In this document: positions 841-35,116 of the stretch, piece after piece
How the letters are laid out: every line of letters starts with the position of its first letter
Position numbering within the stretch: position 1 is the stretch's first letter
Origin: a virus
IMG/VR virus record: IMGVR_UViG_3300046520_000145
Span: 1-35,765 of that record
Reading direction: 5' to 3' (one strand)
DNA: 35,765 nucleotides
Translations under genes and position numbers: made by a program
The notes under the pieces: generated by a model
The model's database searches: none
What the model was told of the DNA's origin: nothing
Seen by the model: the letters and a program-made list of their open reading frames with translations, nothing else

Positions 841-917
<77 letters not shown>

Positions 918-988: not shown

Positions 989-1066
989 ACTGCGAAAACC
1001 GTTCGATCAGCCTCTTGAGGATTGCTGATCCATGTCGGCGGGCCGACTGCCAATGGAGGCAAGCTC

Positions 1067-1885
1067 ATGAAACGAATGGTTATGGACTGGAAGTTCGCGC
1101 TTAATATCGTGTTAGCCCTCGCCGCCGTTTTGCTACCTGCTTATTTCTGGCAAGCAGACCTCTCTGCTTATTCGTTGACAGTCCGGCTCGTCTCATCCTC
1201 AGCCCTTGAGCTTCCCTCCGACTCCAAGATTCACGATATGCAAATACTCGTGAATGGAACGAAAATCGAAGCGCCTTATATTTACTCCCTGTTGCTGATC
1301 AATACCGGCTCGAAGCCCATCCCTACTGGGAACTTCGAAACCCCGCTTCAGATACGCACGATGAACGATGCGAAGCTAATTACGGCGCAGATCACTGGGT
1401 CCGAGCCAGCCGATATCCCGGTTAAATTGTCGATCGATGAGAACCAGGTAAAAATTTCACCTTTCCTTTCGAACCCCAAAGATCAAATTGCAATCACCCT
1501 TGTAAGTTCAGGACCATTGGAACTGACAACACAAGCTCGGATCGCCGGGGTGCGAGATGTCATTTTCGAAGATACGTCTCAAAACAAATCGCACCCATTA
1601 GGAGCGTTTTTTTTCGCCGCATTAGCTGTGCCGTGTATGGCGCTGTACCTGTTTTTCCTTCCGACATCGAGATCGCGAGGGGCAATCAAGATCGTGGGAG
1701 CGGTAAGGTATTTGACCACGGTTGTGTTCTTCGTATCAGCCGTGCATTTCGCTGCCAGGGTCAGCGGAGAACTCAACTACGCAGGGGGTTCTTCAGTCAT
1801 GGTGATCCTTCCTTTATTCATAATCGCCTGGATCATCATGGTATTCCTGGAGCGCAAAAACCGCGCTGAAGGCCCGGCCTCGTGA
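1067..1885 (+). CDS. membrane protein of unknown function, prophage cargo
   Basis: The protein has 272 residues and I do not recognise a family. The start ATG at 1067 is preceded by GGAGG with 7-base spacing; an upstream in-frame TTG at 1022 has no such site. A hydrophobic helix lies near residues 8-28. A roughly 150-residue polar, strand-rich region follows that is probably outside the membrane. Three more hydrophobic segments lie at the C-terminus, near residues 180-200, 217-235 and 242-260. The predicted topology is one N-terminal and three C-terminal membrane helices around an extracytoplasmic domain. It lies between attL and the cos-like region, separate from phage structural operons, so it is probably a lysogenic-conversion gene expressed on its own. 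Membrane-anchored cargo at this position could act in superinfection exclusion, but nothing in the sequence proves that. Confidence 0.7.
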   Translation: MKRMVMDWKFALNIVLALAAVLLPAYFWQADLSAYSLTVRLVSSSALELPSDSKIHDMQILVNGTKIEAPYIYSLLLINTGSKPIPTGNFETPLQIRTMNDAKLITAQITGSEPADIPVKLSIDENQVKISPFLSNPKDQIAITLVSSGPLELTTQARIAGVRDVIFEDTSQNKSHPLGAFFFAALAVPCMALYLFFLPTSRSRGAIKIVGAVRYLTTVVFFVSAVHFAARVSGELNYAGGSSVMVILPLFIIAWIIMVFLERKNRAEGPAS

Positions 1886-2439: not shown

Positions 2440-2525
2440 TGCAGGGTTCTGCAGGGTTTTCTCGATCCCTGTTCGCTCAGGAGAGGCCCAGCAGGCGCTG
2501 CCGGAGGATGGGTGCAGGGGTGCAG
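2440..2525 (+). repeat. TGCAGGG repeats beside the cos-like site
   Basis: TGCAGGG occurs at 2440-2446, 2450-2456 and 2513-2519, with TGCAG again at 2521-2525. The first two are 10 bp apart (one helical turn). They lie 25-110 bp before the cos-like sequence and could be binding sites for the small terminase subunit. This role is inferred from position only. Confidence 0.4.
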
Positions 2526-2549
2526 AAATTGAGACCGATTTAGCCCGCA

Positions 2550-2568
2550 GGCGTGGCGGGGGGACGAC
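2550..2568 (+). other. candidate cos site
   Basis: GGCGTGGCGGGGGGACGAC matches the 19-base P2 cohesive end, as I remember it (GGCGAGGCGGGGAAAGCAC), at 14 of 19 positions. It has the same orientation relative to the Q and P genes. It lies in a non-coding G+C-rich block between attL and the portal gene, where phiCTX and P2 have cos. The exact cut positions cannot be read from sequence alone. Confidence 0.5.
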
Positions 2569-2860
2569 GGCGCGCGCCAGGTGAAGCACGCCCCCATACG
2601 GTGCGCCTCCGACTTCACCCGCCTCACGCCGCTCCCCCGCAGTAAGCCGACCTTCGCCCCAACTCAGCGATAGTAGTTATGTAGGAAATCACCAAAATTT
2701 GGCCCCCTCTGTAACCAAGGCTCGGCAACGTAGAGTGGTCACTAGGAGTTTGAACAATGGCCTAACCATCTCTATTTAGAGAGATTTTTTCATCGACACA
2801 GATTTGTTAGGAGGGCAGGCAGACAAGCGGAGCAAGAAAGACCGGGAGGTTGTTTACTTT

Positions 2861-2876
2861 GGTGTATAGTTACACC
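2861..2876. promoter_or_regulatory. inverted repeat operator before the three-gene cargo operon
   Basis: GGTGTA-TAGT-TACACC is a perfect 6-bp inverted repeat with a 4-base spacer, ending 38 bases before the first gene. A TTGTTT and A+T-rich -10-like sequences surround it. Because the second gene of the operon has an XRE-type HTH, autoregulation through this site is a reasonable inference. Confidence 0.55.
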
Positions 2877-2914
2877 ATACAAATACCTTTTTTACCCCGT
2901 GCTCAGGCAGAAAA

Positions 2915-3733
2915 ATGACCAACCGTAACGGTATCCTTCTTCATTCGCCCCTCACTCACGCCATTGCATCGGTTCGATTTGCGCCATGGGCGAATCTGCC
3001 GAATAAGATTGCTGACATCCAGGACGAGCTGCGGGACATCGCGCCACTGCTGAACGCTGTCCAAATCCAAACAGACCCAAGCATGCTTGCTCATCATTCG
3101 CCTGCTAGCGGTTCCCACATCGCACAGGCATGGGTATTAATGTCCTTGGACAAAAGCTTTTGTATTCAATTTGCACCCGAACAACTATTGGTATTCGCCA
3201 CCAAATACACTAGATTTAGTGATTTTTTAAGTACTTACAGGCGGGCTCTAACTGTACTGTTAAAACACATGCGATTTGTAGATGTAATAAACATGGGCGT
3301 ACGTTATGTTGATAGAATTACGGCAAAGCCCGAAGAAAAAATTTCCGACTACATCTCTGACAAATGGCTTCCTCCGACATTAAATGGTCACGAACGTGCA
3401 GGAGGCACAGTATTTGGGGAGTACAGTAAAGATTCCATTCGCCTTAGAGTTACAGCGCAGTCTTTGCCTAATGCTCTCCCGATCCCAAATGATGTTCTTG
3501 GTATGATTTTGATGTCCCAAGGACAAATACCAGAGATGCAGCTTCAAGGTACATCCGACAAAGATTTAATATTAGACATGGATTCTGTAATATCTTTTTC
3601 GCCTCCTAGAAGAATGGAGACGGAGATGGTATGCATAAATCTTGATCGCCTCCATAGTGTTGCAAATGATTTTTTTAGAAATTCGGATACGATAACTGAT
3701 CACGCTTTCCGTGTATGGCAAGGAGAAAACTAA
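2915..3733 (+). CDS. TIGR04255-type protein, first gene of cargo cassette
   Basis: The protein has 272 residues. The opening HSPLTHAIASVRFAPW and the ending with LDRLH, FFRN, DTITDHAF and VWQ match my memory of the sporadically distributed TIGR04255 family (about 250-270 residues), whose biochemical function is unknown. It is probably soluble: no signal peptide or membrane helix is visible. Codons are visibly more A/T-rich than in the phage structural genes, which suggests separate acquisition. Its stop overlaps the next start as TAATG, so the two are translationally coupled. The ribosome-binding site is weak (AGG before the ATG). It begins a three-gene operon with a DNA-binding regulator, inserted between the cos-like region and the portal gene. 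Confidence 0.72.
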   Translation: MTNRNGILLHSPLTHAIASVRFAPWANLPNKIADIQDELRDIAPLLNAVQIQTDPSMLAHHSPASGSHIAQAWVLMSLDKSFCIQFAPEQLLVFATKYTRFSDFLSTYRRALTVLLKHMRFVDVINMGVRYVDRITAKPEEKISDYISDKWLPPTLNGHERAGGTVFGEYSKDSIRLRVTAQSLPNALPIPNDVLGMILMSQGQIPEMQLQGTSDKDLILDMDSVISFSPPRRMETEMVCINLDRLHSVANDFFRNSDTITDHAFRVWQGEN

Positions 3734-4422
3734 TGTTTGTCGACGCGCCTTCAATTCCGGTTGCAGATCAAACATCAATGCGTATGGGGGCCATAAATCG
3801 AAACTGGTCATCCGAAGCATATGCGCCAATTTCTGAGCGCATTGGCGATTACTATCGACAGGACATTACTCAAACTTCGTTTATATCCAAGCGAAGCGCG
3901 ATACTCGTTGTGAACTCCAACACAGTGATCATCGGTCAAAATCAGCACTCACTATATCTCTTTAGTGGGACAGCGGCTAATGACATACCGCTCGTTGATG
4001 CAGCTCCTTTGCCTTTCTCCGACAGATTGGAAACGGTACAAAAGCGACTTGGTCTTTCTATAACCCAAGTCGCTGAGCTTTTGGGGGTTACTAGAAAATC
4101 TGTTTATGACTGGTTTGATGGCAAAAGTAGCCCTCGGGCTTCTGCGATCCAAAAAGTAGAAGCTCTAAACGACATAATCAACGAGAGCCCTACTGGAATA
4201 GATATAACGCGATTAAAAACCGTGTGGAATATTCCTACAGATGGAGAATCCTTTCTTAACCTTTTGAAAGATGAAGCCATTCCGGTTGATCTGCTAAAAG
4301 AAAAGGCACTCGCTAAACTTTTAGCGTTAGGTCCACGGCTTGGAAAAGCTGACCTCACGCCGGGAAAGGTGAGACAACCTCTATCCACACTAATCGACAT
4401 AGACCGGTCCATTGATGTCTAA
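3733..4422 (+). CDS. XRE-type HTH protein, second gene of cargo cassette
   Basis: The start ATG at 3733 overlaps the previous stop (TAATG) and has AAGGAG seven bases upstream, giving 229 residues. The first 90 residues have no family I recognise. Residues near 97-140 form a helix-turn-helix of the XRE/Cro type: RLGLSITQVAELLGVTRKSV followed by YDWFDGKSSPR. A C-terminal helical part of about 85 residues follows. It is probably a DNA-binding regulator of its own operon, acting on the inverted repeat at 2861-2876. The extra domains suggest it may also contact or sense the partner proteins. It could instead be the antitoxin-like member of a toxin-antitoxin-style cassette. Base composition is A+T-rich like its neighbours. 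Confidence 0.75.
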   Translation: MFVDAPSIPVADQTSMRMGAINRNWSSEAYAPISERIGDYYRQDITQTSFISKRSAILVVNSNTVIIGQNQHSLYLFSGTAANDIPLVDAAPLPFSDRLETVQKRLGLSITQVAELLGVTRKSVYDWFDGKSSPRASAIQKVEALNDIINESPTGIDITRLKTVWNIPTDGESFLNLLKDEAIPVDLLKEKALAKLLALGPRLGKADLTPGKVRQPLSTLIDIDRSIDV

Positions 4423-5317
4423 TGATGACGCATTAAAGACGATAAAAGCTGCGGGCTGGTGGCAGGGCTCTATTCTGAGTTCTGCACAATTGGCTGCTGC
4501 ACATTCAGTACCAGATGGAGTCGATTACTGGGTATTGGCGTCACAGACATGCAATCTTTACAGTGCGGATTTCGACAGTATTCCCGTAGCCGAAATAGTG
4601 GCAGCGCAACGTATTGATGCTATAAATCCTGCTTTCGTAAAGGGGGACCACCCTCGTACGCTACATGTTCGAGGTGTTCTCGACGGCGAAGTAGCTTTTT
4701 TTAGCATTAATATATTGAATAGACTATGGATTCCGCGACAACTCCTTAGTCAACTAGCTCCGGAATTCCATCTTTTCGACGAGATGCCCGATACCAGTGC
4801 AGACTGGCGGAAAAATCAGTGGCTGAACCTTTTTTCCGGATGGCTAGGAAGAAGTTACACGCGTGTAGCATTACCAGATGAATTCAACGACGCATTGAAT
4901 TTATCGAAGATCAAGGACGTATTGAACACAAAGCTAGCGAAGCAGGGTGATAAACTCTACGGCATCTATTTGTCCATAGCGCCGGATAGCGATGAGCCAT
5001 GGGAAGGCATCACCGGTCTAATGCCACCTCCATATTCCCTTGCCATCAAGCTTGTCGTTGATGCCGGAGAGGATCCAGAGCCTCTAAAAAAAGCTCTCAT
5101 CGAGCAGCTTTTTGATCATAAAGTTTCCGACAACACTGTTGAGAATGGCGAGCAAATCACTCGTTCCGCGCTCGCAGAAAAACATGGCATTAGAATCATA
5201 AAACAGGGGATTGAAGCTCAAACCACTGAGCAGATTTCATTAGACGAGCTTCGTTACTATATTCGGTACTCCATGGTAGATCATCTGTCGAACGCGGCGA
5301 TGGCTGTACCTGAATAG
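4415..5317 (+). CDS. SQTC-motif protein of unknown function, third gene of cargo cassette
   Basis: The protein has 300 residues from ATG 4415, which overlaps the preceding stop by 8 bases. An N-terminal GWWQGSIL is followed by WVLASQTCNLYSADFDSIPV, and later by WLGRSYTRVALPDEFND. I associate this pattern (WxQG, SQxCDL, WLxRRYxRPAxPDxFN) with uncharacterised proteins of defence and accessory islands, but I cannot name a family. The conserved Cys in SQTC and the Arg/Asp around the WLGR segment are candidate functional residues. No signal peptide or membrane helix is seen. It is the last gene of the cargo operon and runs convergently into the portal gene, with 28 bases between stops. Confidence 0.62.
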   Translation: MSNDDALKTIKAAGWWQGSILSSAQLAAAHSVPDGVDYWVLASQTCNLYSADFDSIPVAEIVAAQRIDAINPAFVKGDHPRTLHVRGVLDGEVAFFSINILNRLWIPRQLLSQLAPEFHLFDEMPDTSADWRKNQWLNLFSGWLGRSYTRVALPDEFNDALNLSKIKDVLNTKLAKQGDKLYGIYLSIAPDSDEPWEGITGLMPPPYSLAIKLVVDAGEDPEPLKKALIEQLFDHKVSDNTVENGEQITRSALAEKHGIRIIKQGIEAQTTEQISLDELRYYIRYSMVDHLSNAAMAVPE

Positions 5318-5345: not shown

Positions 5346-6392
5346 TCAAATTTCCTCAGGAGAAGTAAATTTTATTACTTCATCCCCCAACCATTCATTA
5401 ACCTGCTGCAAACGTGCCTGGATCGGCTCAAGCTCGTTCATCGCCCAAATCTGCGCCGCTTCTTTGATAGACCCAAACCCCCCCGCGTTTTGCGGAACAA
5501 TACCCATCAGTTGAGGGGGGATTCGCAGCGCTGCGAGCATGTCGTCGCGGCTGATGTTTTTGATCGAGCCGAATTCGTCTTTTGCCGCGACCTCACTGAC
5601 GGGGATTAACTGAATGCCGTCCTTCTTGCCGCCCGGGGCGTACATGAACAGATTCCGAAAATTGCCTGGTCCTTTGGCTGACTTCAGCGCGCTGCGCAAC
5701 GCGGAAACATCCGTCTCGTTCTGCGCGGTGTCGGTCATGTACATGATGAAACCGGCGTGACTCCCGTTGTTGTAGTACTTGCGCCGGAACAAGGTGGCGG
5801 ACTCGTTGAGCAGCGCACTCTGCAGAGCTGGTAGCCACTCCGGCAGGCCGTAGATTTCTTGGTTAATGTCCGCCTCGCGCTGGTGGTAAACGGTCCCGTG
5901 CTTGAATTCGTGCTCGTCGCGCCAGCCGCGCACCTGGTAATAGGTTTCGAGGTCCACACCGCGTCGCATGTACTTGCCCAAGGCGGGTTGCAGGCCGAGC
6001 GTGCTGCGCAGCATGTTCTCCCGCTTTTCCAGATAGCCGTTGCCACACCAGAGGAAGTCCAGGGCGAATTGCTCGAAGGTCTGACGTGAGAGCAATTTGT
6101 GGGGAATGAAGGTGCGGGCCAGCATGTTGCGTTTAAAATTCAGGCCCGATTGTAGAAACACGCTCGCCCGGGAGGACTTGGCCAGCCCGTCGAGGGACAT
6201 CGGCGGCTCGTACCACCGGCCGTTCAGCCAGCACTCCAGGTAGTCGAGAATCCCGCGCTCATCGAGCACAGGAGTCGGGTCTCCGAAGGTAAACGCCTCC
6301 ATCTTGCCGCCCGTTGCCGGCAGCATCTGGTCCGCGATCGCAGCCGGGGCTGATGTAGACATCTGCGTGGTATCGCTGCGGCTGTTGCTCAT
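5346..6392 (-). CDS. Q: phage portal protein (P2 gpQ-like)
   Basis: The protein has 348 residues, close to P2 gpQ (about 344). It forms the dodecameric portal ring through which DNA enters the capsid and to which the tail joins. The segment from residue 60 on (PPMSLDGLAK, then FKRNMLARTFIPHKLLS) and the C-terminal part from GNFRNLFMYAPGGKKDGIQ through IKNISRDDMLAALRIPPQLM to GGFGSIKEAAQIW are typical of the family. The ATG at 6392 overlaps the terminase stop as ATGA, so it is the second gene of a minus-strand P-Q operon. An in-frame TTG just upstream is less likely as the start. Confidence 0.95.
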   Translation of the reverse strand: MSNSRSDTTQMSTSAPAAIADQMLPATGGKMEAFTFGDPTPVLDERGILDYLECWLNGRWYEPPMSLDGLAKSSRASVFLQSGLNFKRNMLARTFIPHKLLSRQTFEQFALDFLWCGNGYLEKRENMLRSTLGLQPALGKYMRRGVDLETYYQVRGWRDEHEFKHGTVYHQREADINQEIYGLPEWLPALQSALLNESATLFRRKYYNNGSHAGFIMYMTDTAQNETDVSALRSALKSAKGPGNFRNLFMYAPGGKKDGIQLIPVSEVAAKDEFGSIKNISRDDMLAALRIPPQLMGIVPQNAGGFGSIKEAAQIWAMNELEPIQARLQQVNEWLGDEVIKFTSPEEI

Positions 6393-8152
6393 CAATAAAT
6401 CTCCATGAAGCCGGTATTCGTTGAGGTTTGGCCCTCAAGCGGTTCGTTCTGCAGTGCGTGGAACAGCGCCCAGGCGAGATCCGCGTGTCCGGTCTCGTCG
6501 GTGCGGCCTGCCGTGTAGGTGAATTGCCGGCCACTGGCCGTAATGGTTTTGCGGATCGCCATCAGCGACTGGGCCATGTCGATCCAGCCGGCATCGAACT
6601 CCAGGCGCCCTTTGTGGATAACGTCGTAAGCCTTGAGCACCAGGCGCGTCTTGACCTCGGGGGAATAGCTGAAGGTCGTCACATTGGGGAAAAACTGGCG
6701 CACCAGCTGCGCCACGCCAGATCCCATACCTGTGATGTCGATGCCGATGTATGTCACCCAATAGCGCATCGTAACCAGGCGGATCGCCTCGGCCTGCGCC
6801 GCGAAATCCATGCCCCGGAATTGGTGGCGCTCGAGCACGCGGAACTTTCCACCTGGAACAGTTGGCGGGGCCACGACCACCAGGCCCGAACTGTCTCCGG
6901 TCTCCGCTGGGTCGTAGCCAATCCACACCTGCCTATCGGCAAACGGCCGCGCGGCGAAAGGTTTGTAGTCCTCGGACCACTCAACCCAGCTGTCGACCAT
7001 GCAGGGCTGCAAGACGTTGAGGGGGAAGATGCTCGCTCCGTCGTCGACGAACTGGCACATGAGCAAGTTCGCGAAGGCGTCCGCGTTGTACTCGAGGCGC
7101 AGCTCCTCCAGGTCGAACAGATCACAGCCGCGCTGCTCGGCATCCAGGATGGTGACGATCTGGCGCCAGATCCGGTCCTCGCACAGTCGGCCCTGCTGCA
7201 GTGCGTCGTGCGACACGTCGAGTTTCAGCCGCTGGGCCACCGGCTTGCCCTTGTTGAAGCGCTCACCGGTCCAGAACGTGTAGGCCTCATGCGCCATGCT
7301 CGATGGTGTCGAGAAGTAGGTGCGGCGGTATTGCTTCTGCATCGCCATGCCGCTGGCGACCTTGTTCAGCTCGTTGAACTTGAAGGTCCAGAAGAATTCG
7401 TCGAAGTAGAAATTACCGTGGTAACCCTGAGCGGTTCGGGCGTTGGTACCGAGGAAATGCAGCTCGGCGCCATTGGCCAGAATGATCGGATCGCCTGTCA
7501 GCTCGACGCCGCAGACCTCGCGGGCGAACCCCTGAATGTACGCCTTGAAGATGTGCGCCTGATTCTTCGATGCGGATAGAAATATCTGATTGCGTCCGGT
7601 GACCAGGGCATCAATGAACGCCTCCCGGGCAAAGTAGTACGTGGCGCCGATCTGACGGCTTTTCAGAATTGCCCTGGTGCGCTGATTGCTCGCCCGGTAC
7701 CAGTCCAACTGATAGCCGAAGCACCCGTCTTTGAACGCCTCGGTCAGCTGCTCGATCTGCTCTTCGCTGAACTCGTTGCGAGCCGCTTTCTTCTTCGGCC
7801 CTTCGTTGCGTTTGGCCAGGTTTGGATTCAGGTCAGTGTCGGTACCGCCGGCCTTGTATCGCTCGATGCGGGCCTGTCGTTCAAGCTGGCGATGCAGCAG
7901 GTCAATTTCCTTGAAATCCCCTCCCGTCTTGCCGTCCTTGAGGATCAGTTGCACCAGGCGTGCTTCCAGTGCCCCACCGATGCGCTCGACGTTATCGGCC
8001 CGGTCCCATTCATCACGCGTTTTCCACGCATGAACGGTCTTTTCCTTTTCATCCAGCATTTCTGCAATCGCGCAGATCCGCAGACCGGTCCAGTAGAGGA
8101 ACTTGGCCTGACGGCGGTTATCGCGGATGGGTGTGGCTTCGGGTGTCGTCAT
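6392..8152 (-). CDS. P: terminase ATPase large subunit (P2 gpP-like)
   Basis: The protein has 586 residues, against about 590 in P2. It powers DNA packaging and cuts cos DNA. Residues 24-48 form an N-terminal HTH (ICAIAEMLDEKEKTVHAWKT). The ATPase shows a Walker A-like KSRQIGAT at about 164-171 and a Walker B-like FYFDEF at about 249-254. The nuclease half contains WIGYDPAETGDSSG and YIGIDITGMGSG, with acidic residues expected for an RNase H-like metal site. It starts the minus-strand P-Q operon, divergent from O, and the shared gap holds a late activator site. Confidence 0.96.
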   Translation of the reverse strand: MTTPEATPIRDNRRQAKFLYWTGLRICAIAEMLDEKEKTVHAWKTRDEWDRADNVERIGGALEARLVQLILKDGKTGGDFKEIDLLHRQLERQARIERYKAGGTDTDLNPNLAKRNEGPKKKAARNEFSEEQIEQLTEAFKDGCFGYQLDWYRASNQRTRAILKSRQIGATYYFAREAFIDALVTGRNQIFLSASKNQAHIFKAYIQGFAREVCGVELTGDPIILANGAELHFLGTNARTAQGYHGNFYFDEFFWTFKFNELNKVASGMAMQKQYRRTYFSTPSSMAHEAYTFWTGERFNKGKPVAQRLKLDVSHDALQQGRLCEDRIWRQIVTILDAEQRGCDLFDLEELRLEYNADAFANLLMCQFVDDGASIFPLNVLQPCMVDSWVEWSEDYKPFAARPFADRQVWIGYDPAETGDSSGLVVVAPPTVPGGKFRVLERHQFRGMDFAAQAEAIRLVTMRYWVTYIGIDITGMGSGVAQLVRQFFPNVTTFSYSPEVKTRLVLKAYDVIHKGRLEFDAGWIDMAQSLMAIRKTITASGRQFTYTAGRTDETGHADLAWALFHALQNEPLEGQTSTNTGFMEIY

Positions 8153-33740: not shown

Positions 33741-33801
33741 CAAGCAAGGAGTGATGCAGGGCGGTACTGTTATTGCTCCGAACGTTTTTAGGAGCTACCC
33801 A

Positions 33802-34956
33802 ATGCCAGAAGGAATGCCAACTCCCAAACAGCTTTGGAATGGAGAGATCCGTTTCTTTTCAATCGATACAGATGTCATTCAAAGCGCTGGGTACAACTTC
33901 GAAAAGGGAGCACTGAACCAACTGCACACACAACTTCCTAAAAACATGGAGTTGCAGTTGACGGAGATTGTGGCCAACGAAGTGGTCAATCATCTGATGG
34001 AGCCAGTACTGAAATCCATTCAGGAAATCCATAGTGCTGCAGCCAACCTAAAGCGTAAAACTGACCTTCCGATGGATCAGATGAGCGATCTTTTCAGTGG
34101 GTTTACTCCTACGGAGTCCGCCCGCGCATTCTTTCGCAAACGTGTAGAAGATTATGCGGAAAGGTGCGGTGGAAGCATCTTGGACATAGAACAAGAAGGA
34201 GTCTTGAGTGAGTTATTCCGCAGATATTTTGCTGTAGAGGCCCCGTTCGAATCAAAAACAGCAAAAAAATCGGAGTTCCCCGACGCAACGGCGTTGCTAA
34301 TTTTAGAAGCCTACGCAAAGGATCAACATGCCGAGGGAATAGTTGTTTCAAGTGATGGTGGCTGGCAGGCCTTCGCGAATCAATCTGAGTACCTTTACTG
34401 TGTCAGAACCTTGGACGAACTCACCGCACTGTTCACCGCAACAGGCGAAGTAGCCACAAAAATCCATGCTGCGATTCGAACTGCCATTGATGACAGCTGC
34501 TCGTCGTTACGTTCCGAGTTAAATAATGCTCTCAAAGAGCACGTTGGTAACGCCTCGTGGGATGTGGGGGAAATATTCTCCGATACAGGCTTCCGGGTCG
34601 AAGGGGAAGTTTATGACGTCAAGCTGCTCGATCACGACTTGATCATCGACGACACTTCTATATGGAACGACGAGGGTAATCCGTCCAGATGGTTGGTCGA
34701 GGTCACTGCTACCGTAAAGGTTGACGTGAATACCACATACAAGACTTACCTGTGGGACTCGATAGATCGCGAAGAGCTCGCCATAGGCTCCGACACGGTC
34801 GGCACTGAGGACGAGATTGAGGTGACGGCTTATCTCACGTGTACGAATGTCCAGCCTGAGTCGACTCCGCGACAGTGGGAGGTTGAGATAGAAATCGCCC
34901 CCGGGGAATACAGTGTTGACGTGGGTGAAGTGCAGACTTTTCCTTGGGAACAATAG
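33802..34956 (+). CDS. PIN-domain protein (DUF4935 type), prophage cargo
   Basis: The protein has 384 residues from ATG 33802, which has AGGAG seven bases upstream; the longer frame from 33751 has poor spacing. Residues about 15-210 look like a PIN nuclease: FFSIDTDVIQSAGYNF, LTEIVANEVVNHL, FPDATALLILEAYA and VVSSDGGWQAF give the expected acidic residues. The C-terminal 150 residues are a strand-rich domain of unknown type. PIN proteins cleave RNA, often as toxins or defence effectors. The base composition is more A+T-rich than the phage genes, and the gene stands alone between int and attR, so it is likely cargo acting against other phages. Confidence 0.82.
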   Translation: MPEGMPTPKQLWNGEIRFFSIDTDVIQSAGYNFEKGALNQLHTQLPKNMELQLTEIVANEVVNHLMEPVLKSIQEIHSAAANLKRKTDLPMDQMSDLFSGFTPTESARAFFRKRVEDYAERCGGSILDIEQEGVLSELFRRYFAVEAPFESKTAKKSEFPDATALLILEAYAKDQHAEGIVVSSDGGWQAFANQSEYLYCVRTLDELTALFTATGEVATKIHAAIRTAIDDSCSSLRSELNNALKEHVGNASWDVGEIFSDTGFRVEGEVYDVKLLDHDLIIDDTSIWNDEGNPSRWLVEVTATVKVDVNTTYKTYLWDSIDREELAIGSDTVGTEDEIEVTAYLTCTNVQPESTPRQWEVEIEIAPGEYSVDVGEVQTFPWEQ

Positions 34957-35046: not shown

Positions 35047-35070
35047 GATTTTTATATTTAAAGCATCTTC

Positions 35071-35116
35071 CTTGTAATCAGTAGGTCCCGGGTTCGACTC
35101 CTGGTGCCGGCACCAT
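35071..35116 (+). repeat. attR core (tRNA-Thr 3' fragment)
   Basis: This is an exact copy of 872-917. It holds only the tRNA from the anticodon loop to CCA and is not a functional tRNA gene, since the 5' half is replaced by phage sequence. Confidence 0.96.

What the first reader, a model, noticed from the sequence alone, without database searches (positions are those of the whole stretch)
2861..5317. Three-gene cargo operon (TIGR04255 protein, XRE regulator, SQTC-motif protein) at the ctx-type locus: candidate undescribed defence system
Seen: three overlapping genes, A+T-richer than the phage, behind a perfect inverted repeat, between the cos-like region and the portal gene. The middle gene has an HTH. 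Known: phiCTX carries its cytotoxin between cos and the portal gene, and P2-like phages carry anti-phage genes (tin, old, fun) at such cargo sites. TIGR04255 is sporadic with no known biochemistry. Inference: a self-regulated accessory system, plausibly against competing phages.
Basis: partly seen in the sequence, partly recalled or inferred. Interest (0 to 1): 0.82.

Follow-up and report, generated by a model that had tools for sequence, protein, structure and literature searches.

The report
Modular three-gene toxin–antitoxin-like phage cargo
A prophage carries, in a slot known to hold anti-phage genes, a three-gene cassette that recurs across very different bacteria; comparison of its relatives suggests a control protein, an antitoxin and a swappable toxin, an undescribed family that plausibly protects the host cell from other phages.

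Summary
The trio is real: 2915-3733 (TIGR04255), 3733-4422 (HTH protein), 4415-5317 (SQTC protein), 45% G+C against 59% for the phage, with overlapping stops and starts. The same order recurs in Pseudomonas, Vibrio, Acinetobacter, Mesorhizobium and cyanobacteria, on prophages, plasmids, a Tn7-like element and in defence islands (AbiE + viperin; retron I-A + RosmerTA; AbiD). Related Citexvirus phages have an empty or differently filled slot between the same cos-like element and the portal gene, the known P2 defence hotspot. In a wider sample TIGR04255 begins a tight three-gene operon (54 of 63 loci; controls 14 of 94) whose third gene is swapped. In several operons that gene is a known toxin (PIN, YhaV, MazF); in the PIN and YhaV cases the middle protein ends in the cognate antitoxin's tail. 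So I read the middle gene as antitoxin and repressor, the SQTC gene as an uncharacterised toxin, and TIGR04255 as control or sensor part. Toxicity and phage defence are inferred, not shown. No family model covers the SQTC protein, and no paper naming TIGR04255 was found in the library searched.

The parts
2512..2580 (.). cos-like element that bounds the cargo slot on the left
   Evidence: 82-84% identical to the same place in phages D14A, Dobby and Sirocco
2851..2871 (+). direct repeat TGTTTACTTTGG/TGTATAGTT, period 12: likely operator of gene B
   Evidence: period-12 repeat in 12 of 18 HTH-type operons, 0 of 20 others; the window's own copy scores 7 of 10, under the threshold used
   Evidence: right arm absent in L010, L009, L048
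2915..3733 (+). gene A, TIGR04255 family protein, 272 aa; proposed control or sensor part
   Evidence: NCBIfam TIGR04255 7e-26; AF2 pLDDT 79
3733..4422 (+). gene B, HTH protein, 229 aa; proposed antitoxin and repressor
   Evidence: HTH_3 6e-7; start overlaps A's stop; middle-gene antitoxin tails in related operons
4415..5317 (+). gene C, SQTC-motif protein, 300 aa; proposed toxin
   Evidence: no family match; 22-sequence alignment with invariant W15, C46, R81, W143, P154, Y207
5346..6395 (-). phage portal gene that bounds the slot on the right
   Evidence: 75-77% identical to Dobby and D14A portal/terminase region

Best explanation
The trio is one version of a modular, three-gene toxin-antitoxin-like system headed by a TIGR04255 protein and carried as host-protecting cargo in the cos-portal slot of a Citexvirus-like (P2-type) prophage. 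Gene C is the toxin (chemistry unknown). Gene B is the antitoxin and, through its HTH, the repressor that binds the direct repeat at 2851-2871. Gene A is the constant control component that keeps the B-C pair inactive and probably senses infection, in the manner of the chaperone in toxin-antitoxin-chaperone systems. On infection by another phage the complex is disturbed, B is lost, and C stops growth before the phage completes. Shown by sequence: conserved trio, swappable third genes that include known toxins, antitoxin tails on the middle proteins of PIN and YhaV operons, the operator-like repeat, the cargo slot, defence neighbours. Inferred: toxicity of C, sensing by A, protection against phages.
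For: Same gene order in distant bacteria. TIGR04255 heads tight three-gene operons at 54 of 63 loci, controls 14 of 94. Third genes include PIN (1e-8, 5e-9), YhaV (7e-46) and PemK/MazF (1e-18). Middle proteins of PIN operons end in the tail of stand-alone PIN antitoxins (E 1e-6 to 1e-8); that of the YhaV operon matches the PrlF antitoxin C-terminus (E 0.006, its only hit). Direct repeat in HTH-type operons only. Cargo slot in related phages; P2 hotspot literature (PMC9122126). Neighbours AbiE, pVip, retron I-A, RosmerTA, AbiD and Tn7-like proteins. Purifying selection on all three genes.
Against: No phenotype is known for any member. C has no family or fold match, so its toxicity rests on position only. 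The B of this window shows no known antitoxin tail. Most third genes are of unknown kind; known toxins are a minority. Defence neighbours were picked by reading, without a background rate. The role of A is analogy only; the aggregation-prone antitoxin expected of a chaperone system was looked for and not seen.
Confidence: 0.58

Rival explanations
1. It is a plain addiction or maintenance module: toxin, antitoxin and accessory protein that keep the prophage, plasmid or transposon in the population, with no role against phages.
For: The trio rides on plasmids and prophages and third genes include type II toxins. The integrated phage already has a cargo PIN gene.
Against: Copies also sit in chromosomal defence islands, and an intact copy stays in a decayed prophage (L010). 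The slot used here is a known defence hotspot. The constant third component is not needed for simple addiction.
Confidence: 0.2
2. It is a defence system that is not a toxin-antitoxin: A and C form an effector complex that acts directly on phage nucleic acid or protein, and B is only a transcription factor.
For: A and C are the larger conserved proteins; B has a clear HTH and an operator-like repeat. The invariant Cys and the W, R, P and Y of C could be catalytic.
Against: In operons with PIN, YhaV or MazF the middle protein has an antitoxin tail or antitoxin position, and the HTH is absent from most other middle proteins.
Confidence: 0.12
3. It is a lysogenic-conversion cassette for host fitness, stress or metabolism, unrelated to phage competition or to toxins.
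For: No phenotype is known.
Against: No enzyme family match for any of the three genes; neighbours are defence or mobile genes; known toxins fill the third position in relatives.
Confidence: 0.07

Closest known systems
Type II toxin-antitoxin pairs (PrlF-YhaV, MazEF, two-gene PIN systems)
   Same: Third genes of related TIGR04255 operons are YhaV, PemK/MazF or PIN proteins, and middle genes carry the matching antitoxin tail in the PIN and YhaV cases.
   Different: A constant first gene (TIGR04255) is added, the antitoxin has a new front part, and the toxin of this window is not a known family.
Toxin-antitoxin-chaperone systems such as CmdTAC (PMC11618068)
   Same: Three genes: effector, antitoxin and a third protein proposed to control the antitoxin and sense infection.
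   Different: TIGR04255 is not known to be a chaperone; gene order starts with the control gene; no aggregation-prone antitoxin segment was found.
P2-like cos-proximal defence hotspot cargo (old, tin and others; PMC9122126)
   Same: Same place in a P2-type genome, next to cos and the portal gene, with variable content between relatives.
   Different: The trio itself is not named in the passages read; activity untested.
RosmerTA (RmrA/RmrT)
   Same: HTH regulator paired with an effector; a RosmerTA pair lies near one trio (L046).
   Different: B matches RmrA over the HTH only (18 bits); A and C have no counterpart there.

Membership tests
TIGR04255 (NCBIfam) | whole-protein score above the curated cut-off of 30 bits | tested here: met
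   91.5 bits, residues 10-268 of 272
Type II toxin-antitoxin system | third gene belongs to a known toxin family | tested here: not met
   C of this window matches no family; met only in relatives
Type II toxin-antitoxin system | adjacent antitoxin gene with DNA-binding domain and operator | tested here: inconclusive
   B has HTH_3 and HTH-type operons share a direct repeat; binding and neutralisation untested
Type II toxin-antitoxin system | toxicity of one protein relieved by the other | not testable with these tools
   needs expression in a laboratory strain
Toxin-antitoxin-chaperone system | third component is a chaperone that binds the antitoxin | not testable with these tools
   A is predicted as a duplicated alpha/beta fold nearest phosphagen kinases (Z 9.1, rmsd 3.5, 181 aligned); binding untested
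Toxin-antitoxin-chaperone system | antitoxin with aggregation-prone hydrophobic segment | tested here: inconclusive
   28% of middle proteins above the hydropathy threshold, 26% of other ORFs; window B below it
P2-type cos-portal hotspot cargo | variable content between cos and the portal gene in related phages | tested here: met
   D14A empty, Dobby and Sirocco other ORFs, window trio
Known anti-phage systems in PADLOC-DB 2.0.0 | match of a system-defining protein | tested here: not met
   A and C none; B only to the HTH part of RmrA, capH and mad1 models; 22 C homologues none
MazF/CcdB fold for gene C | structural match over the domain | tested here: inconclusive
   MazF at Foldseek E 0.35; CcdB at Z 4.8, rmsd 4.5, 98 aligned; model pLDDT 65

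The most novel reading that the evidence does not exclude
TIGR04255 is the common sensor or chaperone of a large undescribed class of three-gene immune toxin-antitoxin systems, into which unrelated toxins (PIN, YhaV, MazF, SQTC and several of unknown chemistry) have been plugged together with the matching antitoxin tails; the SQTC protein is a new toxin family.
Probability: 0.42. Interest if true: 0.88.

Novelty: new variant of a known kind. Interest (0 to 1): 0.74.

Why it matters
TIGR04255 is a family without known function; it occurred in 30 of 398 sampled genomes of one phylum and 35 of 369 of its class. If it controls swappable toxin-antitoxin pairs, it would be a widespread three-part module, would explain why hypothetical small genes sit behind it so regularly, and would give a new toxin family to study. 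The proposal is directly testable: express third genes alone and with their middle gene.

Tried and rejected
Inverted repeat as operator: not conserved in close relatives. MazF- or CcdB-like fold for C: weak hits on a poor model, not claimed. Enzyme role of A from the phosphagen-kinase-like fold: Z is near the level reported for models without true relatives and no function follows; TBP was Foldseek's top hit. HEPN for the 117-125 aa third genes and NlpC/P60 for the 'GLTCATFV' third genes: motif impressions only, no Pfam support. Hydrophobic, aggregation-prone segment in middle proteins: no excess over other ORFs, absent in the window's B. PDB sequence searches with C, A and the 190-aa third genes gave nothing credible. 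Papers naming TIGR04255: none in the library searched, main texts only. The first comparisons of C with the 190-aa family were too shallow and were replaced by a deeper one. The MazF operon's middle-gene tail found no match in plasmids and no Pfam family, so its antitoxin nature is not claimed. Several viral scans for more relatives found none. L045 has B and C but no recognisable A.

Full report
What is there. The window is a virus record of 35,765 bases: a Citexvirus-like, P2-type prophage in the 3' end of a tRNA-Thr gene. The tRNA gene lies at 841-916 and its end is repeated at 35059-35116, 58 bp at 93%. Between a 68-bp element shared with Pseudomonas phages Dobby, D14A and Sirocco (2512-2580) and the portal gene (5346-6395, minus strand) lies the trio. 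Gene A 2915-3733, gene B 3733-4422 and gene C 4415-5317 overlap by 1 and 8 nt and have 45.4% G+C against 58.9% in the phage.

The slot. In D14A the element (468-534) and the end of the portal gene (678) are about 140 bp apart with only one small annotated ORF across them; Dobby has three other ORFs there and Sirocco others. The cos-proximal region between gpA and gpQ is a published defence hotspot in P2-like phages (PMC9122126). In two related phages, L009 and L048, the same trio sits instead between the integrase gene and the attachment site; in this window that second slot holds a PIN_12-domain gene, 33751-34956. L010 (Pseudomonas viridiflava) keeps an intact trio inside a decayed prophage. 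So the trio moves between cargo slots.

The trio is conserved. Protein C found five plasmid records, all with the order TIGR04255, middle gene, C: Vibrio (2), Mesorhizobium, two cyanobacteria. Protein A found an Acinetobacter phage with the trio, also present in different Acinetobacter virus contigs. In whole genomes C occurs in 12 of 299 Pseudomonas and 8 of 398 genomes of the phylum sample, and nearly all intact loci have A and B in front of it; exceptions are contig ends, one copy cut by an insertion sequence, and L045. Between close relatives synonymous sites are saturated or nearly so while 14-28% of non-synonymous sites differ, so all three proteins are under purifying selection.

Context. 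Copies lie inside a Tn7-like element with TnsA, TniB and TniQ proteins (L031), near phage integrases (L030, L044, L046), beside AbiEi/AbiEii and prokaryotic viperin (L043), beside a type I-A retron and RosmerTA (L046), and beside AbiD (L009). I chose which neighbours to test by reading them, so this is a description, not a rate.

A general pattern. TIGR04255 occurs in 30 of 398 genomes of the phylum sample and 35 of 369 of the class sample. At 63 loci, 54 have two tight same-strand genes behind TIGR04255; of 94 control ORFs 14 do (the control set may include spurious ORFs, which lowers its rate). The third genes fall into unrelated kinds: the SQTC family; a 190-aa family with the same QG...S[NHQ]xCD motif, homologous to C by profile comparison (probability 95%, E 2e-8; unrelated third genes E 0.2-0.5); a 130-170 aa family behind middle genes with a WDG motif; and known toxins, namely PIN in L120 and L138 (a PIN ORF also lies directly downstream in L133), YhaV in L130 (7e-46) and PemK/MazF in L083 (1e-18).

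The middle gene as antitoxin. In L120 and L138 the last 37-63 residues of the middle protein match the end of antitoxin-position proteins from two-gene PIN-type pairs on cyanobacterial plasmids (E 1e-6 to 1e-8), whose toxins are 37-46% identical to the third gene. In L130 the only Pfam match of the middle protein is the C-terminal half of the PrlF antitoxin, next to its partner toxin YhaV (E 0.006, below the curated cut-off). The antitoxin tail therefore appears to travel with the toxin, joined to a new front part. By the same position rule B is the antitoxin and C the toxin in this window; this step is inference.

Regulation. Upstream of A in HTH-type operons is a direct repeat of period 12 (TGTTTACTTTGG/TGTATAGTT in the window). 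At least 8 of 10 matches are seen in 12 of 18 such loci, against 1.1 expected from shuffles and 0-2 for other periods, and in 0 of 20 operons without the HTH protein. The window's own copy scores 7. The repeat was noticed by eye before the test and some loci are related, so the nominal P values are too small. The inverted repeat at 2860-2877 is not conserved.

Structures. A is predicted with fair confidence (pLDDT 79, pTM 0.77) as a duplicated alpha/beta fold closest to phosphagen kinases (Z 9.1, rmsd 3.5, 181 aligned) and TBP; this is only slightly above the level reported for models without true relatives, so no function is claimed. C is poorly predicted (pLDDT 65) and its fold stays open.

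Mechanism and verdict. Most likely this is a three-part toxin-antitoxin-like defence module in which A plays the part that a chaperone plays in CmdTAC (PMC11618068). What is shown are sequence facts; toxicity, sensing and protection are not. It matches no system in PADLOC-DB and is best filed as a new variant of a known kind.

Noticed in passing
window 33751-34956: 401-aa PIN_12-domain gene (5e-19) in the slot between integrase and attachment site: a second cargo gene, in the slot where related phages L009 and L048 carry the trio.
   Followed up: partly
window 1022-1885: 287-aa protein with apparent membrane segments just inside the left attachment site, A+T-rich, weakly like PHROG 29378 of unknown function: possibly a third cargo gene.
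   Followed up: no
window 841-916 and 35059-35116: tRNA-Thr gene and a 58-bp copy of its 3' part (93%): attachment sites, so the record holds the whole prophage with host flanks.
   Followed up: yes
L115, L117, L150, L080, L081 (third genes): TIGR04255 operons whose third gene has HxxWH and GLTC[AS]TF motifs like a cysteine peptidase or amidase; no Pfam match.
   Followed up: partly
L097, L103, L139 (third genes): TIGR04255 operons whose third gene is 117-125 aa with an 'ISKAYYGAF'-like motif that recalls HEPN proteins; no Pfam match.
   Followed up: partly
L135 downstream of the trio: A gene resembling a type III restriction-modification methylase starts 6 nt after gene C, read by eye only.
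   Followed up: no
L099, gene 5842-6825: Another TIGR04255 operon (WDG-type middle gene) directly behind phage tail genes similar to those of this window, so other versions of the module also ride on prophages.
   Followed up: no
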